Source: Vineibacter terrae (GTDB taxonomy: Bacteria; Pseudomonadota; Alphaproteobacteria; Reyranellales; Reyranellaceae). From it: a stretch of 64,000 nt of DNA. The translations under genes and the position numbers were made by a program. This document shows positions 6,684 to 63,641 of this stretch, piece after piece. The notes under the pieces are model-generated. The model was not told the origin of the DNA and searched no databases. It saw only the letters and a program-made list of their open reading frames with translations. Location: assembly GCF_008039615.1 (NCBI RefSeq), contig NZ_VDUZ01000005.1, positions 1 through 64,000 of the forward strand. The letters are read 5' to 3'. How positions within the stretch are numbered: the first letter of the stretch is position 1; each line of letters opens with the position of its first letter.

Positions 6684-7424
<741 letters not shown>

Positions 7425-7536
7425 TCATGCGACACGGGCAGGATACAGGATCGTCATTCGGCTGCCATGCGATTTTCGTCAAGGCACGGATGCGATGGCG
7501 TAGGATGACAATCGATACATCAGGAGTGGCTGACGC

Positions 7537-8568: not shown

Positions 8569-8626
8569 GCCGGCCTATGACTCCCGTCCGCACGTCGCAT
8601 CCTCGGTTCCACGGCGGAGGCGCTTC

Positions 8627-9592: not shown

Positions 9593-9628
9593 GGCTGGCG
9601 CTTTGCGCTGCTGCAACGGAGGGTCATT

Positions 9629-10717: not shown

Positions 10718-10811
10718 TCGTTTCGCGAGCCGGTACCGGCGGCATCCGTCGCTTGGCGCCGGCCGCGGAAGGCCGCAGAACGTCGCTCTCACCGATACGC
10801 CTGGACACGCC

Positions 10812-11957: not shown

Positions 11958-11984
11958 GGCTGCGAGCCTTCATCCTGGACAAGC

Positions 11985-12072
11985 TGTCATCCCGAGCGCA
12001 GCGAGGGATCTCCCGCGACTGACGCACCGTGCGCCTTGTCGCGGGAGATCCCTCGCTGCGCTCGGGATGACG
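11985..12072. repeat. Inverted repeat 'gtcatcccgagcg', second copy
   Basis: The arms ctgtcatcccgagcgcagcg agggatctcccgcg and their complement flank a 24-nt centre that is itself similar to the 6538 copy (gacgcaccgtgcgcc versus gacgcacagtgcgcc). Arm differences between the two copies are compensated (gta/tac to gca/tgc, cctg/cagg to cccg/cggg), as expected if the folded structure is conserved. It lies between convergent genes. Confidence 0.87.
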
Positions 12073-12085
12073 GAGGCCTTCACCC

Positions 12086-13099: not shown

Positions 13100-13210
13100 G
13101 TGATGCCTCCCTGTGGCGCGAACGACCGGAGGCTAACGCAGGTTGCGGGAAAGGTGCTCTCTGGTTGATTGCCTGTCCGTGGCCCTTGGCACCTGCCGAG
13201 GAGGAGAGTT

Positions 13211-13219
13211 TGGTATGAT
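13211..13219 (+). promoter_or_regulatory. Candidate extended -10 promoter of the Lrp gene
   Basis: TGgTATGAT is an extended -10 element 36 bp upstream of the Lrp start, in the 156-bp divergent interval that must also hold the acdS promoter and the Lrp binding sites. No good -35 is seen, which is tolerated with an extended -10. Confidence 0.35.
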
Positions 13220-13255
13220 CTCTCGGGCCGGCACCAGGATACGGAAGGTTCTTCC

Positions 13256-13720
13256 ATGGCCGACGAATTGGACAGGATCGACCTGAAGATCCTGCGCCTG
13301 CTGCAGAAGGACGGGCGGCTGACCAATGCCGAGCTGGCGCAGCGCGTCAACGTGAGCGCCGCCACCTGCCATCGCCGCACGCAGCGTCTGTTCGACGCCG
13401 GCTATGTAACGGGCGTGCGTGCCGCCATCGCGCCCGACCGCGTCAACCGCGGCACGCTGGTGGTGGTCGGCGTCGTGCTCGACCGTTCGACGCCGGAAAG
13501 CTTCGCCGCCTTCGAGGCCGCGATCCGCAAGCTGCCGGCGGTGCTCGACTGCCACCTGGTCGCCGGCGATTTCGACTACTTCCTGAAGATCCGGGTGCAT
13601 GACATCGCCGATTTCAACCGCCTGCACGGCAGCCGGCTGATCGCGGTGCCCGGCGTGCGCCAGACCCGCACCTTCTTCGTGATGAAGGAGGTCGTCGACA
13701 ACGCGCCGCTGGACTTTTGA
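13256..13720 (+). CDS. acdR: Lrp/AsnC family regulator, probable AcdR
   Basis: This 154-residue protein has an N-terminal winged helix-turn-helix (ELDRIDLKILRLLQKDGRLT then NAELAQRVNVSAATCHRRTQ) and a C-terminal RAM effector-binding domain ending in VPGVRQTRTFFVMKEVV. The ATG at 13256 gives the family-standard length; an in-frame start further upstream would add a non-homologous stretch. Its divergent position next to acdS matches the AcdR/AcdB arrangement in which the Lrp protein activates acdS in response to ACC. The symbol rests on context as well as family. Confidence 0.85.
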   Translation: MADELDRIDLKILRLLQKDGRLTNAELAQRVNVSAATCHRRTQRLFDAGYVTGVRAAIAPDRVNRGTLVVVGVVLDRSTPESFAAFEAAIRKLPAVLDCHLVAGDFDYFLKIRVHDIADFNRLHGSRLIAVPGVRQTRTFFVMKEVVDNAPLDF

Positions 13721-13722
13721 CA

Positions 13723-13850
13723 CCCTCCCCCAACGCAGTTGGGGGAGGTGGCCGAAGGCCGGAGGGGGAGCCCACGTGATCTTCATTACATAGATCTCGT
13801 CAGCTCCCCTCCGCCCCTTCGGGGCACCTCCCCAGCAAAGCTGGGGAGGA
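13723..13850. repeat. Long palindromic repeat, 'cctcccccaacgcagttggggg' family
   Basis: This element belongs to the 1960-2080 family: cctcccccaacgcagttggg with ggccgaaggccggaggggga on the left, ctcccctccgccccttcggg and cctccccagcaaagctgggg on the right, with a shorter AT-rich centre. It separates the convergent acdR and Bug genes and could terminate both. Confidence 0.9.
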
Positions 13851-13878
13851 AGATGTGGCCCCTCCGTAGCGTACGACC

Positions 13879-14844
13879 TCAATCGAGCGAGATCTTCAAC
13901 TCCTTGATCAGCGCGCCCCATTTCGTCGACTCGGCGCGCACCGTCTCGGCAAACTGCTCCGGCGTGCTGGAGATCGGCTCGACGCCCAGCTCGTCGAAGC
14001 GCTTGACCACGGTCGGGCTGCCGACCGCTTTCACCAGCTCGGCATTGAGGCGCTCGACGATCGGCTTGGGCGTGCCGGCCGGCGCGGCCAGGCCCTGCAG
14101 GGCGTAGGCCTCGCTGTCGGCGACGCCGGCCTCGGCCAGGGTCGGCACGTCGGGCAACGCCGCCAGGCGCTTGGCCGAGGCGACGGCCAGTACCCGCACC
14201 TTGCCCGAGCGCACGTGCTGGATGCCGGCCGCGAGGTCTAGGAACATCGACGGCACCTGGCCCGCGATCAGGTCCTGCACCGCCGGCGCGGCGCCTTTGT
14301 AGGGCACGTGCAGGCCCTTGCTGCCGCTGCGCTGGTTGAACAGCTCCATCGCCAGGTGATGCGGCGTGCCGATGCCCGGCGTCGCGTAGCCCAGCGGCTC
14401 CTTGGCCGCGGCGCGCAGGGCGATGAACTCCTTCACCGTCCTGGCCTCGACCGACGGGTGCACGACCAGCAGCAGGTTGAAGCGCGCCATCATGCCGATC
14501 AGCACGAAGTCCTTGGCCGGATCGTAGGGCAGCGTCTTGTAGAGGTGCGGGTTGGAGGACAGCGTGCTGGTGTCGCCGGTGCCGATCGTGTAGCCGTCGG
14601 GCTTGGACTGCTTCAGCGCCTCGGCGCCGATGATCGTGGCCGCGCCGGGCTTGTTGTCGACGATGATCTGCTGGCCCAGCCCGGCCTTCATCTCTTCCGC
14701 CAGCGTGCGGGCCACCACGTCGGTGCCGCCGCCGGCCGGATACGGCACGATCCAGCGGATCGGCTGCGACGGATAGGCTTGCGCCAGCGCCGGCAGGGGA
14801 ACCGCCAGCGACAGGCCGGTGGCGAGCAGCGTGCGACGATGCAT
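13879..14844 (-). CDS. Bug/TctC family periplasmic solute-binding protein
   Basis: This 321-residue protein begins with a signal peptide (MHRRTLLATGLSLAVPLPAL, cleavage near ALAQA) and shows the family motifs YPSQPIRWIVPYPAGGGTDV, NKPGAATIIGAEAL, VPYKGAAPAVQDLIAGQV and PDVPTLAEAGV. The ATG is preceded by gagggagatgtcgc. No transporter membrane subunits are adjacent; it stands between a palindromic repeat and mobB on the same strand, 32 bp upstream of... the mobB stop side, so mobB is transcribed toward it. The ligand is unknown. Confidence 0.9.
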   Translation of the reverse strand: MHRRTLLATGLSLAVPLPALAQAYPSQPIRWIVPYPAGGGTDVVARTLAEEMKAGLGQQIIVDNKPGAATIIGAEALKQSKPDGYTIGTGDTSTLSSNPHLYKTLPYDPAKDFVLIGMMARFNLLLVVHPSVEARTVKEFIALRAAAKEPLGYATPGIGTPHHLAMELFNQRSGSKGLHVPYKGAAPAVQDLIAGQVPSMFLDLAAGIQHVRSGKVRVLAVASAKRLAALPDVPTLAEAGVADSEAYALQGLAAPAGTPKPIVERLNAELVKAVGSPTVVKRFDELGVEPISSTPEQFAETVRAESTKWGALIKELKISLD

Positions 14845-14876
14845 GCGACATCTCCCTCGTGAGCTTCGTTGTCCGA

Positions 14877-15380
14877 CTATTCTTGCCGCAGCCAGGCTTC
14901 GATGAACGAAGCCACCGCCTCGGTGTCGTCGAGGTCGAGCCAGGGATGAGCCGCGCCGGCATGATGGTCGGCGCGCGGCGCCGCCACGGCGAGCAGGCCG
15001 GGGTCATCGCCGGCGCGCAGCGGCTTGCCTTCGGCGGCACGCCAGACCTCGATGCGGGGATGGGTGTGCCCGGTGAAGCCTTCGACCAGGATCAGGTCGA
15101 CGGGCGTCATGCGCGCCAGCAGCGCCTCCAGCGTGATCTCGCCGCCCTCGCGGTTCTCCCGCATCAAGGCCCAGCGCCGCTCCGACGCCACCATCACCTC
15201 GTGCGCGCCGGCCTTGCGGTGGCGCCAGGAATCCTTGCCTTCGGTGTCGACGTCGAAGCCGTGATGCGAGCGCTTGACGGTCGAGACCGTGATGCCATGT
15301 GCGATCAGGCAGGGCAACAGCCGCTCGATGAGGCTCGTCTTGCCGCTGCCGCTCCAGCCTACGATGCCCAGAAGTTTCAT
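14877..15380 (-). CDS. mobB: Molybdopterin-guanine dinucleotide biosynthesis protein MobB
   Basis: This 167-residue GTP-binding adaptor works with MobA in attaching GMP to molybdopterin, making the bis-MGD cofactor of formate dehydrogenases. It starts MKLLGIVGWSGSGKTSL with a P-loop at residues 8-15, followed by TVKRSHHGFDVDTEGKDSWR and LILVEGFTGHTHPRIEVWR, all diagnostic for MobB. The internal ATG at 15380 is chosen because it puts the P-loop at the usual distance; an upstream in-frame start would add 13 unrelated residues. It follows selD by 54 bp on the same strand, so the two probably share a transcript serving the formate dehydrogenase. Confidence 0.92.
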   Translation of the reverse strand: MKLLGIVGWSGSGKTSLIERLLPCLIAHGITVSTVKRSHHGFDVDTEGKDSWRHRKAGAHEVMVASERRWALMRENREGGEITLEALLARMTPVDLILVEGFTGHTHPRIEVWRAAEGKPLRAGDDPGLLAVAAPRADHHAGAAHPWLDLDDTEAVASFIEAWLRQE

Positions 15381-15434
15381 GTCGAACGCTGCCCACTGCT
15401 CCCTGGCCGATAGGTGCACGACGCGGCAAGAACG

Positions 15435-17669
15435 TCAATCGACCAGCGCGATGCGTGGCCCGGCGCCGGCGCGCGGCAGCACGCGGCCGATGACCGCCGC
15501 GTCCGGCGCATGGGGCCGCAGCGCCGCCAGCAGCGCGTCGGCCTTGTCGGCCGCGATGCCGATCAGCAGACCGCCGGAGGTCTGCGGGTCGAACAACAGA
15601 CCTGCACGGGTGGTGGCCAATGCCATGAACCGCTCGCCGGCGGCACGGTTGGCCGGCGCCATGGTGCTTTCGATGCCGCGCGCCGCCAGATCGGCCGCGC
15701 CAGGCAGGGTTGGCACGGCGCCCAGCGACAGCTCGGCGTCGAGGACCGAGGCACGCAGCATCTCGAGCAGATGGCCGGCCAGCCCGAAGCCCGTGATGTC
15801 GGTGCAGGCGATGGCGCCGGCCGCCCGGGCCGCTTCCCCCGGGGGACCGTTGGACCGCAGCATGGAGTCGATCGCGGCGATGACCCAGGGCGCGCGTGCC
15901 TCGCCGCGCATGTCGGCCGCGAACAGCGCGCCGGTGCCCAGCGCCTTGGTGAGGATCAGGGTATCGCCGGCCTTCAGGGCGCCCTTGCGCAGCAATTGTG
16001 CTAGCGGCGCCAGGCCGTTCACGGTCAGGCCCAGGCTGAGCTCCATGCCCTCGCCGGTGTGGCCGCCGATCAGCGTCGCGCCGGCGTGCTTGAGCTCCTC
16101 GACCACGCCGCGCAGCAGCGCCCGCAGGTCGTTCTCCTGCAGCCGCGGCGGGGCGTGCGGCAGCACGGCGGTCATCAGCGCGCTGTGCGCCGCCGCGCCG
16201 GTGGCGAAGAGGTCGGACAGGCAGTGCAGCGACGCGATGCGTCCGAACAGCCAGGGATCGTCGATCAGGGCGCGGAAGAAATCGACGCTCTGCACCAGGG
16301 CCTGGCCCGGCGGCACGGCGATCGCCGAGGCATCCTCGGCCTCGCGCACGCCCAGCAGCACGCCCTCGCGTGGCGGGATGGCGACGTCGTGCAGCGCGCG
16401 GCGCAGGATGTCACCGTCGATCTTGGCGCCGCAGCCGGCGCAGCGCATCGCAGCCATCGCGTCGCCGCCGTCCGCCGCCGCCGGCGCCATGCCGCCCATC
16501 GCCATCGCGCCCGGCCGCAGCGCCTGGTACATGCGCATCCAGCGCCGGTCGATACGGTTCTTCCAGCGCCACACCCAGTCGCCGCGCACCCACAGCCGGC
16601 CGCGCGCGCCCACGGCATGCTGGTTGCCGGTGGAGACCAGGGTCAGGAACCGGCGTTGCGGGACATAGGCCTGCAGCGCTGCGTCGGGCGATCCCAGCAG
16701 ATTGTGGGCCAGCACCGGTCCTTCGCGGACGGCGAACACGCCGGCCTTGGCCAGGGGCCGCGGCCCGAAGGCGATGACGTCGCCGGCGCCGAACACGTCG
16801 GCGTGCGAAGTCGATTGCAGGTACTGGTTCACCTTGACGAAGCCGCGGTCGTCCAGCGCCAGGCCGGTGTCGCGCAGCCATGCCGGCGCGCCGGCATCGA
16901 CCACCCAGAGCGTCACGTCGCTCGGCATCGTCGTGCCGTCGTCGAGCACGACGGCATCGGCCTGCACCTCTTTGACGCTCTGTCCGGTCGTCACCGCCAC
17001 GCCGCGCTCGGCCAGCACGGCGCTGAAGATCCGCTGCACCGCCGGCGGGTGCGTCGGCAGGACCGTGGCGCTCTTGGTCACCAGGGCGAACGATGCCTTG
17101 CCGCCCAGCCCTGCCTGGGCCAACCGGTGCTGCAGCGCCAGGCACAGCTCGACGCCGCCGGCGCCGGCGCCGATCACGGTGATGCGCCGCTTCTCGATGC
17201 CATCACGTAGCCCCGCCTCGATCGCGGCCCAGCCGCGGCGGAACCCGTCCACGGGTTTCACGGGCAGCGTGTGCTGCGCCGCGCCCGGCACGCTGGCCAT
17301 GTCGGGCCGCGAGCCGATATCGAGCGACAGTCGCTCGAACGGCACCGGCGGGCGACGGTCGCACAGCACCTGCTGGCCGATCAGGTCCAGGCCGATGGCC
17401 TCGGCGTGATAGAGCCGGGCGCCTGCCGCCTGGCACAGCGGCCGCAGGTCGATATGGGCATCGCCGTGGCTGTAGTGCCCGGCCAGCAGCCCCGGCAGCA
17501 TGCCGGAATAGGGTGTCTCCAGGTCGCGCGCGATCACGGTCAGCCGCACATGCGCCGGCCGCTTCATCGCCGCCTGCCGCAGCACCTCGACATGCGCGTG
17601 CCCGCCGCCGACGAGGACGAGCTCGAGGCGCGGTTTGACGGTGGTCGCGAGGGACAAAGCGGATGACAC
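15435..17669 (-). CDS. selD: FAD/NAD(P) oxidoreductase-selenide,water dikinase fusion
   Basis: This 744-residue protein has two enzymes in one chain. Residues about 15-400 form a pyridine nucleotide-disulfide oxidoreductase of NADH dehydrogenase type (LVLVGGGHAHVEVL, TVIGAGAGGVELCLAL, DVFGAGDVI). Residues about 405-744 form SelD, which makes selenophosphate from selenide and ATP (MRCAGCGAKI, QSVDFFRALI, LIGGHTGEGMELSLGL, DPQTSGGLLIG). In the SelD active-site loop the catalytic cysteine (Cys413) and lysine (Lys416) of the Cys-x-x-Lys motif are kept, while the second cysteine of E. coli SelD (GCGCK) is alanine. The start is GTG. Fused forms like this are known; the oxidoreductase may supply reduced selenium. 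ParE ends 9 bp upstream. Confidence 0.92.
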   Translation of the reverse strand: MSSALSLATTVKPRLELVLVGGGHAHVEVLRQAAMKRPAHVRLTVIARDLETPYSGMLPGLLAGHYSHGDAHIDLRPLCQAAGARLYHAEAIGLDLIGQQVLCDRRPPVPFERLSLDIGSRPDMASVPGAAQHTLPVKPVDGFRRGWAAIEAGLRDGIEKRRITVIGAGAGGVELCLALQHRLAQAGLGGKASFALVTKSATVLPTHPPAVQRIFSAVLAERGVAVTTGQSVKEVQADAVVLDDGTTMPSDVTLWVVDAGAPAWLRDTGLALDDRGFVKVNQYLQSTSHADVFGAGDVIAFGPRPLAKAGVFAVREGPVLAHNLLGSPDAALQAYVPQRRFLTLVSTGNQHAVGARGRLWVRGDWVWRWKNRIDRRWMRMYQALRPGAMAMGGMAPAAADGGDAMAAMRCAGCGAKIDGDILRRALHDVAIPPREGVLLGVREAEDASAIAVPPGQALVQSVDFFRALIDDPWLFGRIASLHCLSDLFATGAAAHSALMTAVLPHAPPRLQENDLRALLRGVVEELKHAGATLIGGHTGEGMELSLGLTVNGLAPLAQLLRKGALKAGDTLILTKALGTGALFAADMRGEARAPWVIAAIDSMLRSNGPPGEAARAAGAIACTDITGFGLAGHLLEMLRASVLDAELSLGAVPTLPGAADLAARGIESTMAPANRAAGERFMALATTRAGLLFDPQTSGGLLIGIAADKADALLAALRPHAPDAAVIGRVLPRAGAGPRIALVD

Positions 17670-48099: not shown

Positions 48100-48729
48100 A
48101 TGACCGACCCCTGGCCTTGGCTGACCCTGGCCGGGTTGGGCGCCTTCCATGGCCTCAATCCGGCCATGGGCTGGCTGTTCGCGGTGGCGCTGGGCCTGCA
48201 CCGCCAGGACCGCCGTCTCGTCTGGCTGTCGCTGCTGCCGATCGCGCTGGGCCATGCCCTGTCGGTCGCCGCCATGGCCATGGTCTTCGTGTCGGCCGGC
48301 GTCATGGTGCCGCCGCGCGCGGTGCGCATTGCCGCCGGCCTCGCCCTGATCAGCTGGGCGTTCTACCACTGGCGCTACGGCGCGCGTCATCGCGTGCGCG
48401 TCGGCATGCGCACCGGCATGGCGGGTCTGGTGCTGTGGTCGTTCCTCATGGCGACCGGTCATGGCGCCGGCCTGATGCTGTGGCCGGTGCTGATGCCGCT
48501 GTGCTTTCCCGACGGCGCGCCAGCGCCCGGCGCTGCCGGGCCGATCGTGACCGCGCTCATCGGCGTGGGCGTGCATACGCTGTCGATGCTGGTGGTGACG
48601 GGGCTCATCGCGGTCACGGTCTATGCCTGGCTCGGCCTGTCCATCCTGCGCAGCGCCTGGATCAACCTTGACCTCATGTGGACCGTGGCCCTCGCCGCCG
48701 CCGGCGGATGGCTTTTGCTGGCCGGTTGA
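48100..48729 (+). CDS. Multi-pass membrane protein, function unknown
   Basis: This 209-residue protein has about six hydrophobic helices (for example WPWLTLAGLGAFHGLNPAMG, WLSLLPIALGHALSVAAMAM, VRIAAGLALISWAFYHW, GLVLWSFLMATGHGAGLMLW, ALIGVGVHTLSMLVVTGLIA and VALAAAGGWLLLAG). The conserved-looking GAFHGLNPAMGWLFA and GHALS histidines recall nickel/cobalt- or metal-exporter-type proteins, but I would not assign it. It follows SBP56 after a palindromic repeat and may be co-transcribed; a link to copper or sulfur handling is speculative. Confidence 0.7.
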   Translation: MTDPWPWLTLAGLGAFHGLNPAMGWLFAVALGLHRQDRRLVWLSLLPIALGHALSVAAMAMVFVSAGVMVPPRAVRIAAGLALISWAFYHWRYGARHRVRVGMRTGMAGLVLWSFLMATGHGAGLMLWPVLMPLCFPDGAPAPGAAGPIVTALIGVGVHTLSMLVVTGLIAVTVYAWLGLSILRSAWINLDLMWTVALAAAGGWLLLAG

Positions 48730-48824
48730 AATGTGATGGTACAATACTCGCCGACCTCTTGCGCCAGCAGGTCATCTGCGAGATCATGTCAAGGGGACAA
48801 GAATACGTACTTGGGGAGGCTGGG

Positions 48825-49985
48825 ATGAGAAAGTCACAGCCAAATAAGAAGGCGCCTCGGGGATCCAGGGGGAAGAGACCGGATATCCTCGGCGCGAGGA
48901 CAACATCAAAAGGTCTCGGTGCCGGGGAGCGCTTCTATGCGCTCGGCGGATTCACCGGCCGGATGGAGTCGCTGCAGGAGGGCACCGCAGCCGGTGCGCC
49001 GAAGGTGCCGGATGCCGAGGACATCGCACGCATGGCCGGTGCCCTCAGCACGGCGGCGCGGGAGGATCCGGGCGCCTTCGGCGTCCTGTCCGAACGGCCC
49101 AGCGAGGGCGACCTGCGCGAGCTGCTCAGCGACACCTTCACGGCGCTGCGGCAGCAGGGACCGAAGGCGCCGCTGTCGGCGCCGCAGCGCAGCGCGCTGG
49201 AGGCGATCATCCGCCTGAGGGGGCGACCGGCGCTGCTCGTGCGGGACGATACCTTCGTCGTTCCCGAGGGTGCCTGGGAGATGTTGGCGCCCTTCCGCCC
49301 CGATATGTCTACCGTCCTCAAAAGCGTGTGCCGCATCGAGATCGCGGAAGGCTATCCGGAGCTGCCCTACGCCGGCACCGGCTTCGTCATTGGAAAGAAC
49401 CTGGTCATGACCAACGCGCATGTCGCGGAGGTGTTCGCGGCCAAGGCGGCCGGGGGGTGGCGGATCAAGCCTTCGATGAAGATCATGATCGACTTCAAGG
49501 AGGAGTTCGGGTCCGCCGCGCGCGCGGAATTCCCGATCGTGGAGATCGTCGGCATCCACAAGACGCTTGATCTGGCGCTGCTGAAGGCAAACCCGAGAGG
49601 CACGCCGGGTCACGCCTTCCCCAAGCCGCTGAGCGTGCAAAAGGATTCGGGCTTCGTGGCTGCCGGCAACAACGTCTACACCGCCGGCTATCCCGCTTCG
49701 GATTCGAGCCGCAATGATCCCACCCAGATGCATCGCATCTATGGCGGGATCTACGAGAAGAAGCGCCTGTCGCCAGGGCGGATCATGGCTGCCAGTGTCG
49801 CGAACAAGGATCTGTCGCACGACTGCTCGACGCTGGGCGGCAATTCCGGGTCGTGCGTTGCCGATCTGGCGACACACACCGTCGTCGGCCTGCATCACGG
49901 CGGCCGCTACCGGGAGGCGAACCATGCGGTTCTGCTGCCCACCCTGGTCAACGACCCGATGCTGGCGGCGGTGAATTTCAGGTAG
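48825..49985 (+). CDS. Trypsin-like serine protease with N-terminal unknown domain
   Basis: This 386-residue protein has an N-terminal basic stretch and an uncharacterised region (residues about 30-175), then a chymotrypsin-fold protease domain. The catalytic triad is visible: His199 in LVMTNAHVAEVF, Asp249 in KTLDLALLK and Ser341 in LGGNSGSCV. No signal peptide or membrane helix is found, so it acts inside the cell. The ATG at 48825 follows ggggaggctggg; upstream in-frame ATGs would extend into a region of different composition. It is the first gene of a three-gene cassette with a 9-bp gap to the next. A regulated protease of a conflict/defence system is the best guess. Confidence 0.82.
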   Translation: MRKSQPNKKAPRGSRGKRPDILGARTTSKGLGAGERFYALGGFTGRMESLQEGTAAGAPKVPDAEDIARMAGALSTAAREDPGAFGVLSERPSEGDLRELLSDTFTALRQQGPKAPLSAPQRSALEAIIRLRGRPALLVRDDTFVVPEGAWEMLAPFRPDMSTVLKSVCRIEIAEGYPELPYAGTGFVIGKNLVMTNAHVAEVFAAKAAGGWRIKPSMKIMIDFKEEFGSAARAEFPIVEIVGIHKTLDLALLKANPRGTPGHAFPKPLSVQKDSGFVAAGNNVYTAGYPASDSSRNDPTQMHRIYGGIYEKKRLSPGRIMAASVANKDLSHDCSTLGGNSGSCVADLATHTVVGLHHGGRYREANHAVLLPTLVNDPMLAAVNFR

Positions 49986-49994
49986 GCGGCTGTC

Positions 49995-51887
49995 ATGGCT
50001 GACGATGGCGCGTTACCACCAGCGGAGATCACGCCCGCCGAGCGAGAGCGCAAGATTCTGGCCTATGTGGCGGAGGAATGCCTGAAGTTCGAAGGGCTGC
50101 GCCAGATGTTGATGAATCAGGGCGCCGACGATCCGGTCGCCTTTCGCGGCGCAGACCGCAGCGTCGAGGGCGCCGTGCTGGCGCTGCTTGATCCGGCACG
50201 AACCTCCGCGGCGGTCAATCTTGCGCGAATCGCCTTGTACGAAGGCCTTTTCTACCACCGTGAGATCGGGAAGCTGCGGTTTGGCCTCAATGAGGTGATC
50301 GATCGGAACGATCAGGATGCGATGCAGGCCATGCAGGCGCGCGACGATATCTTTGCGCGCTGGGCCGAGTTCGCCGAGGGCATGTCGCGGGTTGGCCCGG
50401 CGATCTGCAAGATCCGCGTCAAGGGGACCGACAAGGGGACCGGATTCCTGGTCAGTGACCAGCATGTGCTCACCGCTCATCACACGGTCGGATCCTTGAT
50501 CGACACGAACGGCGTCGCGAAGCCCGGCAGCGATCTGCAGATGGAGTTCGTCTTCGACGACATCGTACTGGCGGGCAAGCCCATCGGGGCTTTTCGCACG
50601 ATCGTGCACGCCGCGAAGGATTGGCTCGAATTGTCGTCGGTCAGGGACGACGATGAAGACAAGCCTACGGGGCCATTGCCCCAGATCACGCCGGGCCGCC
50701 TCGACTTCGCGCTGATCAAGCTGGCGAAGCCGATCGGCAAGATTCCGCCCAGGTACCGCAGGAACTCGCCGCGCGGCTCGATCGACCTTGCCAACCTGGC
50801 GACGCCAGCCCAGAGCGGCACCCAGATGCTGATCGCGCATCATCCGGGCGGCGCCGATCTGCGCCTGTCCGTGGGGCTGGTTCATACCTTTTCCAATTGC
50901 CGGCAGCGCATCCGGTACAAGACGCCCACTGTTCACGGTTCCTCCGGCGCGCCTTGCTTCTCGGTCGATTGGAGACCTCAGGCGCTGCACAATGCCGGTT
51001 ATGACGCGGCACGGGTCAATCAGGGGATACCCGTGGCGCTGATCCAGGCAGCGATCACCGGTGCCGGCGGCGGCCGCAACGTACTTGCGCCGAAGCCTGC
51101 CTTCCTGTCGCCGGTGACGGCCGAGAACAAGCCGATTCTTGGCCGGCAGGATCTCGCCGAGCGCATCGAGGCGATGATCGACGGTAGCAGCGATCTGACG
51201 ACGATCACCGTCACCGGCGCGACGGGTTCGGGCAAGACGTTCACAGGCGAGCTGGTGCGCAGCCTGGCCATGAGCCGTGGCCAGCAGGCATTCCTGTTCG
51301 ACGCGGAAAAATTCGCAGGCGACACGCCGGAGAAATTCGCGCGGCGCCTCGTCAACGAGATATCGGGGCACGTCGATGCCGAGCCGCCGCCGGCCCCGGA
51401 CAGTCGCCAGCGCGCGCGCTGGATCACCCTCAAGCTCAGCGAGTGGACCCAGGGCTTGCTGGCCGTGGACTCCGGCGGGGCGCCGGCGCGACGGACGTTG
51501 TGGCTGATCTTCGACGGGCTCGATGTCGTGCAGTTTGCACAGGAGACGCATGACCTGCTCGTCGCCATGATCGCTGGCGACGAATCGGGGCCGGCTCAGC
51601 CGCTGCGTTACGTGCTGCTGGGCTATGGCGGCGATCTGGCGAGCGTTCAGCCCGAGCGCATCTGGCGCAGCGACCTCAATTTGCTATCGGGGACTGCCGT
51701 GGCGCCGTTCATGGCGCATGTGCGCGATGCGCTTGGCAAGCCGCTGGATGATCAGTTGCGCGAAGCGAGCGCCTATGTCGAGCAGGCGAGGGACCTCGGT
51801 ATCACCTCCGTGTCCCATCTGGCGAAGGCGCTGGAAAGATGGGCCGCGCGCCGCCGCAAGGGGGCGGATGCCGCCGGCGAGGAGTAG
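49995..51887 (+). CDS. Trypsin-like protease fused to a P-loop NTPase
   Basis: This 630-residue cytoplasmic protein has three parts. Residues about 15-100 form a helical N-terminal domain (ILAYVAEECLKFEGLRQMLM) resembling effector-associated adaptor domains. Residues about 130-345 form a trypsin-like protease with His163 (LTAHHTVGS), Asp237 (RLDFALIKL) and Ser317 (VHGSSGAPCF). Residues about 385-600 form an NTPase with Walker A GATGSGKT (408-415) and Walker B LWLIFDGLD (Asp507). Protease and NTPase in one chain, between a second protease and a STAND ATPase, suggests NTP-controlled proteolysis. The next gene starts 4 bp after the stop. Confidence 0.82.
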   Translation: MADDGALPPAEITPAERERKILAYVAEECLKFEGLRQMLMNQGADDPVAFRGADRSVEGAVLALLDPARTSAAVNLARIALYEGLFYHREIGKLRFGLNEVIDRNDQDAMQAMQARDDIFARWAEFAEGMSRVGPAICKIRVKGTDKGTGFLVSDQHVLTAHHTVGSLIDTNGVAKPGSDLQMEFVFDDIVLAGKPIGAFRTIVHAAKDWLELSSVRDDDEDKPTGPLPQITPGRLDFALIKLAKPIGKIPPRYRRNSPRGSIDLANLATPAQSGTQMLIAHHPGGADLRLSVGLVHTFSNCRQRIRYKTPTVHGSSGAPCFSVDWRPQALHNAGYDAARVNQGIPVALIQAAITGAGGGRNVLAPKPAFLSPVTAENKPILGRQDLAERIEAMIDGSSDLTTITVTGATGSGKTFTGELVRSLAMSRGQQAFLFDAEKFAGDTPEKFARRLVNEISGHVDAEPPPAPDSRQRARWITLKLSEWTQGLLAVDSGGAPARRTLWLIFDGLDVVQFAQETHDLLVAMIAGDESGPAQPLRYVLLGYGGDLASVQPERIWRSDLNLLSGTAVAPFMAHVRDALGKPLDDQLREASAYVEQARDLGITSVSHLAKALERWAARRRKGADAAGEE

Positions 51888-51891
51888 GGCC

Positions 51892-54800
51892 TTGGCGAAC
51901 GTGCCGAATCCGGCGCCGATGATCCCCGAAGACGATCTTGCCGATCTGCGGGAGATCGCCCGGGCATCGCGCGCACCTGCGCCCGACGTCGGCTGGCGCA
52001 GCGTTGGATCATCGACCTACCAGAAGATCCTGAAGACGGCTGCGTTTCTGGGCCGGTTCGAGCCGGCGCGCCTGTTTCCCGATGCCGGCGTGGCCGACCT
52101 CCGGCAGCTGCTGAACGTCTGCAATGTCGCGGCCGAAGGTGACACGACGCAGTGGATCCTGAAGGCGGACGAGCGCCGAAAGATATTCGCCGACGTGGCG
52201 ACCACGGTCGATGGGCTGCGCGCCGGGGTCGACGAGGCGCAGCAGCAGCTCCAGGCCCTGGGTGCGTCGGCCGGCGATGCCCTCAGCCAGGCCCTGGCCA
52301 GCCTCGCAAGCGGGGCGCGCATCGATCCCGCGGTCGCCAGCCGCGAAGCCCTGGCGGCCTACAGGTCCGTGCTGGGGTGGCTTCCGGAAGCATCGAGCCT
52401 GCCCGTCAGTCCACGCGCCGAGCTGCGCCGGATCGAGCTCGAGGAGCTGCTCGAGGCGTTCCGTTTCCTGACGGGTTACGATCCACAGACCGGCCGGGAT
52501 CTCTTTGTCGGCCGCGACAAGGAACTGCGGGATCTGCGGGTGTTTGCCGACGTTCTGGAGTCGGAGGGCATCGGCGAGTCCATCCGCCGCGCCGTGCGGC
52601 GCGTGGCCGGTCGTCGACCGGCAACGATGATCCTGAGCGGGGTCGGTGGCATCGGCAAATCGACTCTGCTGGCGAAGTTCATCCTGCAGCACGTGCAGCC
52701 GGACGCCGGGCAGCAGATGTGGTTCGCCTATCTCGACTTCGACCGCTCGACGGTCACGGCAGCTCAACCTGGCACGCTGCTTCTGGAGATCGTGCGGCAG
52801 CTGAGCTGGCAATTGCCGGCGGGCCATGACGATCTGCGGCAGCTGCGCGCCCAGGTCCGCGAATGGATGGAGCAACGGCAACGCGCGGCAGGCAGCACGG
52901 CGAGCGAAAGCGGGACGGCATCTCGGCAGGCGGCCGCCATGCATGACGCCCGGATTCCTCCCGACCTGCTGCCGCCTCAGGTCCTCTATTCATTCCTGAG
53001 CGGGCTTTCACGGCAGATCACGTCCAGCGACGCGCCCGACCTGCCGCTGCTCCTGGTGTTCGACACGCTCGAAGAAGCCCAGGCTCTGGGAGATGAGGCG
53101 GTTCGCCGGCTTCAGGGATTCATCGAAGCCGTCCACGCCGCCATGCCCCAGACGCGGGTTCTGATCGCCGGTCGCGACGACGCCAAGGGCTTTTTCACGA
53201 CCGCGGCGCGGCACACCCTGGAAGAATTCGCGGATCGCGCCAGTCGCCAGTCCTTCCTCGAGCGACGCGGCGTCAGCCCATCCATCTCGGCCCAGGTCGC
53301 GGACGAAGTCGGCGGTCGTCCGCTCGCCTTGCTGCTGGCGGCACGGCTGGTGCGGGAGAAGGGTGCCGACGCGGCGAGCGTGAGCTTCGTGGACACGCTG
53401 AGGGGCCTCTTCAGGAAGCGGCTGATCGAAGGGATACTGTATGGGCGGATTCTCGATCACGTCGCCAAGGATCTGCGGGACCTTGTGCACCCCGGCCTGG
53501 TGTTGCGCCGTATCGATCACGACGTCGTACGCCAGGTCATGCTGCCCGTCCTCGGACACCCCGACCTTTCCGACGACCGGATCGCGGCAATCCTCGATGT
53601 GCTTCGCCGCCAGAAGGATCTCGTAAGGGTCGAGCCCGACGGAAGCGTGCGCCACCGCGCCGACATCCGCGGCCAGATGCTGGAGCTGATGCGCGAGGAA
53701 AAGCCACGGGAAACGGAGGCGCTGCATCGCGCCGCAGCCGACTACTACCTCAGGCGGCAGGCTGATCCGGCGAACGCCGCCACAGCCGAGCGCGATCGCG
53801 TCGAGGAGCTGTATCACCGGCTCGCCGCCGGGCTCGACCTCGACACAATTCCGGGACGATGGACCTCCCGAGCGCGGTTGGATCTGGCGTCGGCAGTCGA
53901 CGAAATCGCCCATGTCGGAGGTCGGGGAACGCTCAAGGTGATGCTTGATCGCAGTCCGACGGATGAAGAGGGGCGCGCGCTGCCAGTGAGCCTGCGGCGG
54001 GAATGGGCGATCCGCACGATCAAAGCGTCGCTGTCAGCCGATGAGCCGGAGAGGGCACTGGCCGTGCTATCGGAAAGCGGCGACCTTCTTCCAGACGACA
54101 AGCGCCTTCTCCTGGAGCGTCGGACATTTGATCGGGCCGGCAAATGGGACCAGGCAAGAAACCTCAAAGGCTGGCGCTCGCACACAAACCCCCGAGATTG
54201 GGGCATCATGTCGATCCCCGTGAAGTCAGCGCAAGGGGCCTGGTTATTGCCCCTGGAAGATTGGGGCATGTCGGTCCTTGAGGCGGCTGATTTCGTTGAG
54301 CGCGTTGTCGACGAGCCGGAAAAGTGGAGCGAGCTGGCGAGATTCCTGTCCGAGCTCGCGGTAGAGGGCGTGCCGTGGCGTCCGGGCGAATTGCTGGCCA
54401 TCGTCCGGTTGCAGGCGCGACTGGCGCGAGGCGGCCTTCGCCGTGCATCGGCTGATGACGTCACGCGCGGTTGGTACGACGATCGGCCATGGCCGATCAC
54501 GGCGACGCCGACCAACGACCAGTTCTGGTTCATCACCTTGACGGATGAAGTCGATCGGACAGGGTTCGCGATTTGTGACGGCATGCCGATGATCGAGGTG
54601 ATGCGAAACCAGGTCAGGTTCCTTGGCCGCCTGCTCGATGACGCGCGGCAATCGACGCCGGTTCTGATGGCCGCGCGCAGCATCTGCGAAGTGATGGAGA
54701 AGGAGACCCGCATCTTCCGGCACGTGGCCCGGAGGATCGGCATACCGGAGACGGACATCGGCCCCGCCGAGTCGCTGGTTCTGCGGCATGTCATGCGCCC

Positions 54801-55149
54801 GGCGACACCGCAATGGTACGTGCCCCTGGCCTGCGCCCTGCGGCGAGACTGGCGGCAATCGATACCGGTATCGGCTCTCTACGACTCGGAAATGCCCACC
54901 CTGCCGTTCGAGCCGGCGTCGTCGTGCGGAACCACGAAGTCGCTGGCCGATCTGTTCGCCCAATTCGACGGCCTGGGCGTGCTTCACATCGTGCTGGGAC
55001 GCTTCACGGCGCGGACGAGGCTGTCCGATGGCGACTTCCGGCGGCTGGTGTCCGCCTACGGCAGGTGGCGGGCCGATCTTTTCGCCGACATCGACGGTCT
55101 GATCGACCCGCTGCTTCCGCCGGTGCCGCGCTCGAGGCCCCGCGCTTGA
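51892..55149 (+). CDS. Large STAND-type NTPase
   Basis: This protein of about 1,085 residues has a helical N-terminal region (residues about 10-215), then the STAND core: FVGRDKELRDLRVFADVLES, Walker A GVGGIGKST (250-258), Walker B LLLVFDTLEE (Asp391) and DEVGGRPLALLLAARLV, the GxP-type sensor motif. Winged-helix and helical repeat regions follow up to a C-terminal domain with many Trp residues (for example RGWYDDRPWPITATPTND). The start is probably TTG 51892, preceded by ggagtagggcc; GTG 51901 and ATG 51919 are alternatives. STAND proteins detect a trigger and oligomerise. Here it probably senses an invader and controls the two upstream proteases; this is inferred from context. Confidence 0.82.
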   Translation: MANVPNPAPMIPEDDLADLREIARASRAPAPDVGWRSVGSSTYQKILKTAAFLGRFEPARLFPDAGVADLRQLLNVCNVAAEGDTTQWILKADERRKIFADVATTVDGLRAGVDEAQQQLQALGASAGDALSQALASLASGARIDPAVASREALAAYRSVLGWLPEASSLPVSPRAELRRIELEELLEAFRFLTGYDPQTGRDLFVGRDKELRDLRVFADVLESEGIGESIRRAVRRVAGRRPATMILSGVGGIGKSTLLAKFILQHVQPDAGQQMWFAYLDFDRSTVTAAQPGTLLLEIVRQLSWQLPAGHDDLRQLRAQVREWMEQRQRAAGSTASESGTASRQAAAMHDARIPPDLLPPQVLYSFLSGLSRQITSSDAPDLPLLLVFDTLEEAQALGDEAVRRLQGFIEAVHAAMPQTRVLIAGRDDAKGFFTTAARHTLEEFADRASRQSFLERRGVSPSISAQVADEVGGRPLALLLAARLVREKGADAASVSFVDTLRGLFRKRLIEGILYGRILDHVAKDLRDLVHPGLVLRRIDHDVVRQVMLPVLGHPDLSDDRIAAILDVLRRQKDLVRVEPDGSVRHRADIRGQMLELMREEKPRETEALHRAAADYYLRRQADPANAATAERDRVEELYHRLAAGLDLDTIPGRWTSRARLDLASAVDEIAHVGGRGTLKVMLDRSPTDEEGRALPVSLRREWAIRTIKASLSADEPERALAVLSESGDLLPDDKRLLLERRTFDRAGKWDQARNLKGWRSHTNPRDWGIMSIPVKSAQGAWLLPLEDWGMSVLEAADFVERVVDEPEKWSELARFLSELAVEGVPWRPGELLAIVRLQARLARGGLRRASADDVTRGWYDDRPWPITATPTNDQFWFITLTDEVDRTGFAICDGMPMIEVMRNQVRFLGRLLDDARQSTPVLMAARSICEVMEKETRIFRHVARRIGIPETDIGPAESLVLRHVMRPATPQWYVPLACALRRDWRQSIPVSALYDSEMPTLPFEPASSCGTTKSLADLFAQFDGLGVLHIVLGRFTARTRLSDGDFRRLVSAYGRWRADLFADIDGLIDPLLPPVPRSRPRA

Positions 55150-56608: not shown

Positions 56609-56998
56609 ATGATCGGTCGGTTCGGCCGCGCAGTGCTGGGGACTGTGGTCGCGGCCACCATGCTGATGGCCGGTGCCGCCATGGCCATGGCGGCTGAGCT
56701 GGTGATGTTCCATTCCCGCAGCTGCCCGTGGTGCGCGGCCTGGGACCGCGACATCGGACCGGTGTACGGCAAGACCCCCGAAGGACGCCTGTTGACGCTG
56801 CGGCGCGTCGATGCCGATCGCAGCACGGATGGCGGCGTGCGCCTGTCCAGGCCGGTCGATGTCACGCCCACCTTCGTGATCGTGGCCTGCGGCCGCGAGG
56901 TGGGCCGCATCACAGGCTACCCCGGCGAGGATCACTTCTGGGGCCTGCTGGGCATCGAGATCGAGCGGCTTCGGACCACGCTTGCAACGAAGTGCTAG
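56609..56998 (+). CDS. soxS: Thioredoxin-like protein SoxS
   Basis: This 129-residue periplasmic protein has a signal peptide (AVLGTVVAATMLMAGAAMAM, cleavage near AMAAEL) and a thioredoxin-type active site CPWC in MFHSRSCPWCAAWDRDIG, followed by DVTPTFVIV with the cis-proline. SoxS proteins reduce and reactivate SoxY. It is the first gene of the rightward sox operon, 45 bp ahead of soxXA. The ribosome-binding site is gcgagggaacgtcggc. Confidence 0.88.
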   Translation: MIGRFGRAVLGTVVAATMLMAGAAMAMAAELVMFHSRSCPWCAAWDRDIGPVYGKTPEGRLLTLRRVDADRSTDGGVRLSRPVDVTPTFVIVACGREVGRITGYPGEDHFWGLLGIEIERLRTTLATKC

Positions 56999-57043
56999 AA
57001 CAGCGCGGGACGAACGGGCCCGCGAAGAGGGGAAGCGCCTGTG

Positions 57044-58369
57044 ATGCGGATCAAGGTAAGACGGCCGTGGCCGGCCGCGTTGAAGGGGAGCAGAAGCGAG
57101 GTTGGGGATGGTCGCGGCGCCCTGTCATTATGCCTTGCAGCCTCCGTGATCGCCCTGCTCGTGGCGCCGGCCACCGTTGCGGTGGCTCAGACCAGGGCCC
57201 CGGCGCCGCTGCATCTGGAGGGGTCGGCGGCACCCGAGCCGTGGACCCGCTACCGTGGCTGGAACGCGGCGCGGTGGGATGACTACAACACCCTGGCCAG
57301 GCGCGACCTGACCAGGCCGCCGGGGCAGGAGATCGAGATCGCCACCGTCACGGGCGATCCGAAGAAGGGCCAGGAGCTGGCCTTCTCCCGTGCCCGCGGC
57401 GGCGGATGCCTGGCCTGCCATGTCATGGGCACGTCGAGCCAGGAAACGCCCGGCAGCTTCGCGCCCGACCTGTCGGAGATCGGTGCTGCCGGCCGCACCG
57501 ACCAGTGGCTGTTCAACTACGTCTACGACGCGCGGGTCTACAACCCGCAGACATCGATGCCGCCATGGGGCGCGCACGGCTTCTACACCAAGGGCGAGGT
57601 CGGCGACATCGTTGCCTTCCTGAAGACGCTGAAGGCGCCGGCGACGTTCAAGGATGCGCTCGACGATCCCCAGAAGCGCAAGCAGCCGGTCGAGGACCGC
57701 GAGGCGCTCGATCCTTTCGTGAACCCCGCTGCCGAGCGCATCGAGGTCGGCGCGGCGCTGGCGGCGAAGCCAGTGGGCAACGGCAAGAGCTGCGTGTCGT
57801 GCCACGCCGACGCCAAGGCGGCGTTCGCCGGCTGGGCCACGTCGATGCCGCGGTGGGAGCCGCGCCTGAACAAGGTGCTAGGTGTCGAGGAGTTCATCTA
57901 CCGCCATGCCAAGGCGACACTGGACGTCGACTGGCGCATGCAGAGCACCGCGAACACCGACCTGTCTGTCTACCTGCATTCGCTCTCCAACGGCCGTGAG
58001 ATCCGTGTCGATGCCTCCAGCCCCGAGGCCAAGGCGGCGGTGGCGCGCGGCAAGACCCTGACCGAGACCAAGATCGGGCAGCTCAACTTCGCGTGCATCG
58101 ACTGCCATACACAGGAGCATGGGGCCTTGAAATGGCTGCGCGGCCAGTGGCTGGGCGAATTCCGCGGCCAGCTCGACCATTTCCCGACCTGGCGCACCAG
58201 CCGCGGCACGGGCGAGACCTGGGACGTGCGCAAGCGCTTCCAGTGGTGCGCGGTGCAGGTGCGGGCCAATGAGCTGCCGCCTGATGCACCCGAATACGGT
58301 GATCTTGAGCTCTACCTGAAGAGCCTGAACCAGGGCCTCAAGCTCACCGCGCCGAACATCCGGCATTGA
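57044..58369 (+). CDS. soxXA: Fused SoxX-SoxA c-type cytochrome
   Basis: This 441-residue triheme cytochrome combines two subunits that are usually separate. After a signal peptide (LCLAASVIALLVAPATVAVA), residues about 95-200 form the monoheme SoxX part: GGGCLACHVMG at 122-126 and the Met172 ligand in NPQTSMPPWG. Residues about 215-441 form SoxA: CVSCH at 250-254, CIDCH at 351-355 and Cys402 in FQWCAVQVRANELP, the persulfide haem-ligand/active-site cysteine. SoxXA couples thiosulfate oxidatively to the SoxY cysteine. No separate soxX or soxA gene is present. ATG 57044 is chosen over the adjacent GTG 57041. Confidence 0.9.
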   Translation: MRIKVRRPWPAALKGSRSEVGDGRGALSLCLAASVIALLVAPATVAVAQTRAPAPLHLEGSAAPEPWTRYRGWNAARWDDYNTLARRDLTRPPGQEIEIATVTGDPKKGQELAFSRARGGGCLACHVMGTSSQETPGSFAPDLSEIGAAGRTDQWLFNYVYDARVYNPQTSMPPWGAHGFYTKGEVGDIVAFLKTLKAPATFKDALDDPQKRKQPVEDREALDPFVNPAAERIEVGAALAAKPVGNGKSCVSCHADAKAAFAGWATSMPRWEPRLNKVLGVEEFIYRHAKATLDVDWRMQSTANTDLSVYLHSLSNGREIRVDASSPEAKAAVARGKTLTETKIGQLNFACIDCHTQEHGALKWLRGQWLGEFRGQLDHFPTWRTSRGTGETWDVRKRFQWCAVQVRANELPPDAPEYGDLELYLKSLNQGLKLTAPNIRH

Positions 58370-58380
58370 GAGGACGACCT

Positions 58381-58848
58381 ATGACCAACGACTTGGCAAT
58401 GAACCGCCGGCGCGTCCTGGTGGGCGCGTTGGGCATGACCGCCGCCGCGGCCCTCACGGCGATCGCGGCACGGCCGGCGGCGGCGACGCCCGAGACCGCC
58501 AAGCAGCTGCTGCAGACCCTGGCCAAGGGCGAGCCCAAGGAAGGCCGCGTGACCCTGAAGGCGCCGGAGATCGCCGAGAACGGCAATGCCGTGCCGGTCA
58601 CGGTGTCGGTCGAGAGCCCGATGACCGACAAGGACCACGTCAAGGCCCTGCACATCGTCGCCGACGGCAACCCCAACCCGGGCGTGGCCTCGTTCTTCTT
58701 CACGCCGCTGGCGGGCAAGTGCGAGGTGCAGCTGCGCGTGCGCATGGCGCAGACCCAGAAGATCGTCTGCGTCGCGGAGATGAGCGACGGCACGCTGTGG
58801 AGCGCCGCGCGCGAGGTAAAGGTCACCATCGGCGGCTGCGGCGGCTGA
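58381..58848 (+). CDS. soxY: Sulfur carrier subunit SoxY
   Basis: This 155-residue periplasmic carrier has a twin-arginine signal (NRRRVLVGALGMTAAAALTA) and ends with the swinging-arm sequence KVTIGGCGG, whose cysteine carries the sulfur intermediates of thiosulfate oxidation. Internal motifs KALHIVADGNPNPGVASFFF and GTLWSAAREVKV are typical. It lies 11 bp after soxXA and 24 bp before soxZ, with which it forms the SoxYZ heterodimer. Confidence 0.95.
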   Translation: MTNDLAMNRRRVLVGALGMTAAAALTAIAARPAAATPETAKQLLQTLAKGEPKEGRVTLKAPEIAENGNAVPVTVSVESPMTDKDHVKALHIVADGNPNPGVASFFFTPLAGKCEVQLRVRMAQTQKIVCVAEMSDGTLWSAAREVKVTIGGCGG

Positions 58849-58872: not shown

Positions 58873-59202
58873 ATGGCCGACGACATCAAGCCCCGCATCC
58901 GCGTGCCGCAGAACCCCAAGAAGGGCGACGTGCTGGAGATCAAGACGCTGATCACCCACCCGATGGAATCGGGCCAGCGCAAGGACACGCAGGGCAACAC
59001 CATCCCGCGGCGCATCGTCAACGCGATGGCCGTCACCTACAACGGCAAGCCGGTGTTCTCGGGCAAGCTGGAACCCGCGATCTCGGCCAACCCCTATCTG
59101 TCGTTCTTCGTGAAGGTCGAGGAGAGCGGCACGCTCGCCTTCGAATGGAAGGACGACGACGGCTCGGTCTACACCGCCGAGCAGAAGATCACGCTGGCCT
59201 GA
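58873..59202 (+). CDS. soxZ: Sulfur carrier complex subunit SoxZ
   Basis: This 109-residue immunoglobulin-like protein has the SoxZ motifs IKTLITHPMESGQRKDTQGN and IVNAMAVTYNGKPVFSGKLE, ending GSVYTAEQKITLA. It has no signal peptide and is expected to be exported bound to Tat-exported SoxY. It is the usual partner of SoxY. The gene is followed by a 173-bp palindromic repeat before soxB. Confidence 0.96.
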   Translation: MADDIKPRIRVPQNPKKGDVLEIKTLITHPMESGQRKDTQGNTIPRRIVNAMAVTYNGKPVFSGKLEPAISANPYLSFFVKVEESGTLAFEWKDDDGSVYTAEQKITLA

Positions 59203-63338: not shown

Positions 63339-63641
63339 ATGGGCATCCGTGTTCCAGCCATGGTGCTGGCCGTGTGGCTTCTGCCGTTGCAGGTATCGGC
63401 GCAGGCGACCGGTCCGTCGGGCCAGGCGATGGCGCAGACCTGCTACGTCTGCCACGGTCCGGCCGGCAAAAGCGACGGGCCGATCGCGTCCCTGGCCGGT
63501 CTGCCCAGGGACCACATCGTGCGCCAGATGGCCGACTTCAAGGCCGACCGGCGGCCCGGCACCATCATGAACCGCATCGCCAAAGGCTATAGCGACGAGC
63601 AGATCGCCGCGATCGCCGACTTCATCGCGACCTTGAAGTGA
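63339..63641 (+). CDS. Small c-type cytochrome (FccA/SoxE-like)
   Basis: This 100-residue periplasmic cytochrome has a signal peptide (VLAVWLLPLQVSAQAT), one haem site TCYVCHGPAGKSDG and a C-terminal region with Met in GTIMNRIAKGYSDEQIAAIA. Its position 11 bp before a flavocytochrome c sulfide dehydrogenase flavoprotein gene suggests it is the haem subunit (FccA, also called SoxE). The ribosome-binding site is gggggaggcaggca. Confidence 0.88.
   Translation: MGIRVPAMVLAVWLLPLQVSAQATGPSGQAMAQTCYVCHGPAGKSDGPIASLAGLPRDHIVRQMADFKADRRPGTIMNRIAKGYSDEQIAAIADFIATLK

What the first reader, a model, noticed from the sequence alone, without database searches (positions are those of the whole stretch)
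57044..58369. Natural fusion of SoxX and SoxA in one triheme protein
One frame contains a SoxX-like monoheme domain (CLACH, Met172) followed by a complete diheme SoxA (CVSCH, CIDCH, Cys402). Standard Sox systems encode SoxX and SoxA as separate subunits. A covalent 1:1 fusion fixes the stoichiometry and the haem order, and it is a useful marker for tracing this Sox lineage. I cannot say how widespread it is.
Basis: partly seen in the sequence, partly recalled or inferred. Interest (0 to 1): 0.65.

Follow-up and report, generated by a model that had tools for sequence, protein, structure and literature searches.

The report
Fused SoxXA cytochrome in Reyranella-type bacteria
Two proteins that normally pair up to start thiosulfate oxidation are encoded here as one fused protein, a conserved variant of a fusion already reported in other sulfur bacteria, with one predicted haem-binding residue changed in every relative examined.

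Summary
Window 57044-58369 (+) encodes one 441-aa protein that passes the curated cut-offs of both SoxX and SoxA, heading a soxXA-Y-Z-B-C-D cluster. It is no assembly accident: 30 distinct window-type proteins share the fusion, three CxxCH motifs, Met172 and Cys402, and 29 of 30 a linker of 25-26 residues. In Reyranellaceae 25 of 75 genomes hold a fusion-type gene, and it tracks SoxB (22 both, 3 fusion only, 1 SoxB only, 49 neither). It also occurs on an Indioceanicola replicon and in gammaproteobacterial MAGs.

They lie in another cluster, without soxB and with an AACIE-arm SoxY paralogue, so they do not undo the fusion.

SoxXA fusion as a kind is already in print, for Halorhodospira (PMC8877833, passages); the fusions seen here do not form one clade (AU p 0.0001).

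What looks new: in all 30 proteins the cysteine that other SoxA carry near haem 1 is an invariant His288, with no spare cysteine. That predicts a bis-His haem 1.

The parts
57044..58369 (+). soxXA fusion gene, 441 aa (GTG at 57041 is an alternative start)
57044..57190 (+). N-terminal signal peptide, residues 1-49 (basic start, hydrophobic stretch, AVA-Q)
   Evidence: read by eye from the translation; not scored by a program
57191..57352 (+). conserved N-terminal extension, residues 50-103 (PWxRxxxWxxxxWxxxNxL), function unknown
   Evidence: alignment A1 of 14: invariant P66 W67 R69 W73 W78 N82 L84
57353..57634 (+). SoxX monohaem cytochrome domain, residues 104-197
57407..57421 (+). CLACH haem site of the SoxX domain, residues 122-126
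   Evidence: C122, C125, H126 in 30 of 30
57557..57559 (+). Met172, predicted distal ligand of the SoxX haem
   Evidence: 30 of 30; aligned with the MP motif of solved SoxX chains
57635..57706 (+). linker, residues 198-221, nearly fixed in length
   Evidence: pattern distance 25-26 in 29 of 30, 32 in L097
57707..58366 (+). dihaem SoxA domain, residues 222-441
57791..57805 (+). CVSCH, SoxA haem 1 site, residues 250-254
   Evidence: C250, C253, H254 in 30 of 30
57905..57907 (+). His288, at the place of the cysteine of other SoxA; predicted distal ligand of haem 1
   Evidence: His in 30 of 30; only 7 Cys in each core, all accounted for by 3 CxxCH and Cys402
58094..58108 (+). CIDCH, SoxA active-site haem, residues 351-355
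   Evidence: C351, C354, H355 in 30 of 30
58247..58249 (+). Cys402, active-site cysteine and haem ligand
   Evidence: 30 of 30; aligned with the corresponding cysteine of 1h31 and 2c1d
58381..58848 (+). soxY, true GGCGG-arm type
   Evidence: TIGR04488 150.6 bits, cut-off 125; tail
58873..59202 (+). soxZ
   Evidence: TIGR04490
59443..61149 (+). soxB, the only SoxB match of the genome
61146..62477 (+). soxC sulfane/sulfite dehydrogenase
   Evidence: TIGR04555
62461..63243 (+). soxD-like monohaem cytochrome c
   Evidence: generic cytochrome matches only; named from its position after soxC
63339..63641 (+). small cytochrome c, followed by an FCSD flavoprotein that runs past the window end
56609..56998 (+). 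thioredoxin-like exported protein (CPWC), just upstream
   Evidence: Pfam match below cut-off; next to the fusion in L012 and L013
56113..56544 (-). ArsR-family repressor, divergent; best specific match BigR, below its cut-off

Best explanation
The gene encodes an exported three-haem SoxXA, the enzyme that starts the Sox thiosulfate pathway, with its electron-accepting SoxX joined to the N-terminus of its catalytic SoxA by a conserved linker. Thiosulfate is joined oxidatively at Cys402 on the active-site haem and passed to the GGCGG arm of the SoxY encoded next door. The two electrons go to the Met172-ligated SoxX haem of the same chain and on to a soluble cytochrome c. SoxB and SoxCD finish the oxidation. 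SoxA haem 1, His/Cys in the solved enzymes (recalled), is predicted to be bis-His here (His254/His288). Shown: the fusion, its conservation, the motifs, the cluster, the loss of the cysteine and the invariant His. Inferred: the catalysis, the electron path, the bis-His ligation.
For: Both curated models over cut-off in one frame, and in 9 of 9 related fusions scanned. Solved SoxA and SoxX chains align to the two halves. An AlphaFold2 model of low confidence (mean pLDDT 57.6) still gave SoxA chains as best matches (Z 13.4-14.0, 199-203 residues, rmsd 3.5-3.9) and, for the SoxX part, SoxX chains (2oz1_D Z 9.1, rmsd 3.2, 102 residues; 1h32_B Z 8.8, rmsd 3.7, 106 residues) above other cytochromes c at 7.6 and below. 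30 of 30 distinct proteins keep the 3 CxxCH, Met172, Cys402, Arg398 and His288. soxY and soxZ follow the fusion in 13 of 13 loci (L012-L022, L063, L102), and soxB in 11 of 13; the other two (L012, L020) end before it. Fusion and SoxB co-occur in Reyranellaceae: 22 both, 3 fusion only, 1 SoxB only, 49 neither of 75 (Fisher p 1e-14, which ignores kinship).
Against: No biochemistry. A separate SoxX and SoxA exist in the genome and could serve the same SoxYZ. soxC and soxD follow in the window and in L013, L014, L015 and L102, but were not found in 6 loci with 3 kb or more after soxB (L016-L019, L021, L022), so the complete pathway does not always go with the fusion. In L023 and L024 the fusion has no soxYZB within the stretch held, so its role there may differ. 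One genome, G038, has soxYZB without any fusion. Three fusion-type loci (G062, G064, G071) have broken frames, two of them (G064, G071) with no SoxB match in the genome.
Confidence: 0.85

Rival explanations
1. The N-terminal domain is another class I cytochrome c that was joined to SoxA, not SoxX.
For: SoxX is a small cytochrome c domain; Pfam sees only generic Cytochrom_C/CBB3 there. The SoxX halves of the window type and classical alphaproteobacterial SoxX lie on opposite sides of a supported branch (99/86).
Against: TIGR04485 equivalog over cut-off; best solved matches are SoxX chains by profile and by fold. Cytochrome c-550 PedF scores 20.7 bits against a cut-off of 122.
Confidence: 0.05
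2. The fusion is an assembly or sequencing artefact that removed a stop codon between two genes.
For: None found in the window; broken frames do occur at this locus in three other assemblies (G062, G064, G071).
Against: 30 distinct proteins show it, with a linker of 25-26 residues in 29; no signal peptide lies before the SoxA half, by eye.
Confidence: 0.01
3. The thiosulfate-oxidising SoxXA of this organism is the split pair on contig C14, and the fusion does something else.
For: A separate soxX and soxA pass both cut-offs. Split SoxA is in at least 70 of 75 Reyranellaceae, far wider than the fusion. G038 has soxYZB and only the split kind.
Against: The split pair sits with an AACIE-arm SoxY paralogue (203 bits, cut-off 172) and no soxB; 49 of the 70 genomes with split SoxA have no SoxB over cut-off. 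The fusion sits with GGCGG SoxY, SoxZ and SoxB.
Confidence: 0.09

Closest known systems
SoxXA fusion of thiosulfate-using Halorhodospira (PMC8877833; passages read)
   Same: SoxX fused to the N-terminus of dihaem SoxA in one triheme protein.
   Different: Its sequence could not be reached here, so whether it shares the window clade and His288 is unknown. Halorhodospira is a phototrophic gammaproteobacterium; the window organism is an alphaproteobacterium with soxCD in the same cluster.
Classical SoxXA/SoxAX heterodimers of Rhodovulum sulfidophilum (1h31-1h33, 2oz1) and Paracoccus pantotrophus (2c1d)
   Same: SoxX and dihaem SoxA folds, active-site cysteine, CxxCH order.
   Different: Two chains there, one here. 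Cysteine there at the position of His288 (alignments).
TsdBA of Marichromatium purpuratum (5lo9)
   Same: Natural fusion of an electron-accepting cytochrome with a SoxA-like thiosulfate enzyme; matched by fold and described as fused to a di-heme acceptor in PMC6879331 (passage).
   Different: TsdA makes tetrathionate, and its partner is a different, dihaem cytochrome, not SoxX.
AACIE-arm SoxY cluster (TIGR04487) with split soxX, soxA, soxZ
   Same: Homologous SoxX and SoxA; present in the same genome and on a Methylobacterium plasmid (hit H2).
   Different: Split subunits, no soxB beside them in this genome, SoxY tail AAC(V/L/I/T) instead of GGCGG.

Membership tests
SoxX (TIGR04485) | Score over the curated equivalog cut-off | tested here: met
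   74.7 bits, cut-off 61, residues 119-196
SoxX (TIGR04485) | One CxxCH haem and a Met distal ligand | tested here: met
   CLACH 122-126 and Met172 in 30 of 30 proteins; the ligand role is inferred from alignment
SoxA (TIGR04484) | Score over the curated equivalog cut-off | tested here: met
   143.5 bits, cut-off 110, residues 228-440
SoxA (TIGR04484) | Active-site cysteine after the C-terminal CxxCH | tested here: met
   Cys402 in 30 of 30, aligned with 1h31 and 2c1d
Dihaem SoxA of the Rhodovulum/Paracoccus type | Cysteine as the distal residue of haem 1 (ligand role recalled; papers not held) | tested here: not met
   His288 in 30 of 30, no spare Cys; Cys in 14 of 15 split dihaem SoxA aligned, Ser in L065
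SoxXA fusion protein as in Halorhodospira | SoxX at the N-terminus of SoxA in one chain | tested here: met
   definition from PMC8877833 passages
SoxXA fusion protein as in Halorhodospira | Common descent with the Halorhodospira protein | not tested
   No named Halorhodospira sequence could be reached; none of 7 genomes with fusions tested has a reaction-centre gene
Complete Sox system (SoxXYZABCD) | All components in the genome | tested here: met
   XA, Y, Z, B, C over curated cut-offs; SoxD only by position and generic cytochrome matches
Complete Sox system (SoxXYZABCD) | Thiosulfate oxidised to sulfate | not testable with these tools
   needs growth or enzyme assays

The most novel reading that the evidence does not exclude
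In this fusion lineage SoxA haem 1 has been converted from the cysteine-ligated haem of the classical enzyme to a bis-His haem, kept in all 30 members examined from Alpha- and Gammaproteobacteria. Haem 1 would then have a much higher potential and could take part in electron transfer, so that the fused protein is a three-haem wire instead of a two-haem enzyme with a spectator haem.
Probability: 0.3. Interest if true: 0.7.

Novelty: new variant of a known kind. Interest (0 to 1): 0.45.

Why it matters
SoxAX is described as highly recalcitrant to mechanistic analysis (PMC4423706, passage). A one-gene, one-chain form gives a fixed 1:1 enzyme to purify. The natural replacement of the haem 1 cysteine by histidine makes the question of what haem 1 does directly testable. 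The apparent split of roles in Reyranellaceae (fusion with SoxB and GGCGG SoxY, split pair with AACIE-like SoxY and no SoxB beside it) also warns against reading thiosulfate oxidation from soxX and soxA genes alone.

Tried and rejected
Artefact: rejected. Other cytochrome: rejected. 'The fusion is the only SoxXA in some genomes': I first thought so of G001 and G039, because the fusion query found no split SoxA there. Searches then showed a separate SoxX over cut-off in G001 and a SoxA fragment (48.2 bits) in G039, so I dropped it.

All fusions as one clade: rejected under the model used (AU p 0.000118); without L099 and L101 not rejected (p 0.266). L099 and L101 (fused) group with L100 (two adjacent genes) at 100/100 in the SoxA tree, but in the SoxX tree L099 stands apart from L100 and L101. 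An old fusion split again later in some lines is not excluded by this test. In the SoxX tree the 29 window-type rows need 2 changes, not 1. Long branches L074, L083, L097 are unsure; L074 was dropped before the tree and the tests.

For the SoxX part, generic cytochromes c follow closely behind SoxX at Z 7.6 and below. Placing Halorhodospira: PF00124 was absent from the 7 genomes tested, and the order of G481 as held is that genome alone.

I opened passages, not whole texts, of PMC6397845, PMC8877833, PMC13019369, PMC4423706, PMC6934394, PMC3072093, PMC6382920, PMC6879331, PMC4429474, PMC8833165 and PMC9562282; of the other listed papers I saw only the listing. PMC8877833 is the only one in which I saw a SoxX-SoxA fusion stated. 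The SoxAX review and structure papers asked for are not held, so a report of this fusion or of a haem 1 histidine in them is not excluded.

Full report
Observation. The frame at 57044-58369 (+) is open and encodes 441 residues. It matches TIGR04485 SoxX (74.7 bits, cut-off 61) and TIGR04484 SoxA (143.5 bits, cut-off 110) in that order. A profile of the SoxX half finds the SoxX chains 1h31_B, 3oa8_B and 2c1d_B first; the SoxA half finds 1h31_A, 2c1d_A and 3oa8_A. The AlphaFold2 model from 14 sequences is weak (mean pLDDT 57.6), yet its best structural matches are SoxA chains over residues 219-438 and, for residues 88-197, SoxX chains.

Setting. The gene heads a cluster: soxXA-soxY-soxZ-soxB-soxC-soxD-like-cytochrome c, with an FCSD flavoprotein running beyond the window. 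Upstream lie a thioredoxin-like gene and a divergent ArsR-family repressor. SoxY is the GGCGG type. SoxB matches once in the 8.76-Mb genome, here. The fusion core of Reyranella sp. CPCC 100927 (L012) is identical to that of G073, which is placed in the window's genus.

How widespread. Of 75 Reyranellaceae genomes, 25 hold a fusion-type match: 21 in one full frame, 1 cut by a contig end (G069), 3 in broken frames (G062, G064, G071) (my tally). SoxB passes its cut-off in 23. Cross-table: 22 both, 3 fusion only (G024, with a SoxB fragment; G064; G071), 1 SoxB only (G038), 49 neither. In an even draw of 385 genomes of the class, 67 had any match at E 1e-6 and two a full fusion of this type, the window's and G200 (at most four candidates were scored in each genome). 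In 369 genomes of the class of G456, a MAG labelled Gammaproteobacteria, 8 matched at E 1e-30: 7 are fusions in one frame and G510 has two adjacent genes. Four of the seven (G456, G746, G596, G481) carry the window-type signature. Indioceanicola profundi has it on a 1.18-Mb replicon with soxYZBCD. soxY and soxZ follow the fusion in 13 of 13 loci examined (L012-L022, L063, L102) and soxB in 11; the other two end first. soxC and soxD follow in L013, L014, L015 and L102 but not in L016-L019, L021 and L022, which have room for them. In L023 and L024 no soxYZB lies near.

Separate soxX. The genome also has a split soxX (77.2 bits) and soxA (215.2 bits) on contig C14. They lie with soxZ, a SoxY of the AACIE-arm paralogue family (TIGR04487, 203 bits, cut-off 172), an FCSD flavoprotein, a small cytochrome and a molybdenum hydroxylase pair, without soxB. 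Split SoxA is found in 70 of 75 Reyranellaceae, a lower bound; 49 of those 70 have no SoxB over cut-off. Ten split loci with a SoxY frame (five from Reyranellaceae: L030, L059-L062; five from fusion genomes whose family is not told: L078-L080, L086, L089) have a SoxY tail of AAC followed by V, L, I or T; no SoxY frame was found in L058. Beside window-type fusions every SoxY found ends in GGCGG. Only the C14 SoxY was scored against TIGR04487. 8 of 8 further fusion genomes also hold a separate SoxX over cut-off.

Descent. In the SoxA tree the 29 window-type rows form one group (100/99), the fused rows L098 and L082 another, and the fused rows L099 and L101 sit with the split pair L100. Holding all fusions together is rejected (p 0.000118); without L099 and L101 it is not (p 0.266). 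The SoxX tree agrees in outline but is weaker, and L099 stands apart there. The simplest reading is at least two fusions; one old fusion with later splitting is not excluded. A Halorhodospira fusion is in print (PMC8877833, passages); I could not place it.

The haem 1 change. In split dihaem SoxA a cysteine lies six residues after a conserved V/L-E (14 of 15 aligned; Ser in L065); the four monohaem SoxA, the four fusions of other types and the solved chains also have it. In the window type it is His in 30 of 30 distinct proteins, and each core has exactly 7 Cys, all used by three CxxCH and Cys402. The profile alignment puts this His on the Cys of 1h31_A and 2c1d_A without a gap; the MAFFT alignment puts it one column beside, with a gap, though the spacing from the glutamate is the same. 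That the cysteine is the haem 1 ligand in the classical enzyme is recalled (Bamford 2002, Cheesman 2001; not held). Met268 and Met299, other candidates, are each missing in one of 30; His288 in none.

How it works. By analogy with SoxAX (PMC4423706, passages), Cys402 takes up thiosulfate oxidatively and hands it to SoxY; electrons leave by the SoxX haem. The linker distance is 25-26 residues in 29 of 30 (32 in L097) and its sequence is conserved, which suggests a structural role, not a loose tether. The fixed 1:1 ratio follows from the fusion. Any rate advantage is guesswork, since PMC4423706 holds that electron transfer between the haems is already rapid relative to catalysis.

Verdict. A real, conserved SoxXA fusion; the kind is known, the lineage and its haem 1 signature look new.

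Noticed in passing
L030 (G000:C14:106000-125999), 10130-16512: A SoxB-less cluster of soxA, soxZ, AACIE-arm soxY, soxX, FCSD flavoprotein, cytochrome c and a xanthine-dehydrogenase-like Mo/2Fe-2S pair. Split SoxA is in at least 70 of 75 Reyranellaceae; its substrate is unknown.
   Followed up: partly
L104 (G038:C189:5000-16000), 7257-9820: soxY-Z-B without soxXA upstream, in a 97% complete genome with no fusion found: a natural case to test whether the split pair can serve SoxB.
   Followed up: partly
L056/L105 (G071:C4) and L055/L106 (G064:C145): Fusion-type genes with broken frames in genomes without a SoxB match: decay of the locus, or sequencing errors.
   Followed up: partly
L082 (G457:C24): A second, different SoxX-SoxA fusion (446 aa, keeps the haem 1 cysteine) in a Chromatiales MAG that also has the window-type fusion.
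   Followed up: partly
L016-L019, L021, L022: Fusion-headed sox clusters in which soxC and soxD were not found after soxB, unlike the window.
   Followed up: no
window 48678-55149: Three consecutive large frames read by eye as trypsin-like protease and P-loop NTPase proteins, perhaps a conflict system; not scanned.
   Followed up: no
window 57191-57352: Conserved extension (PWxR...W...W...N.L) between signal peptide and SoxX; the solved-structure profile search gave no match over it.
   Followed up: partly
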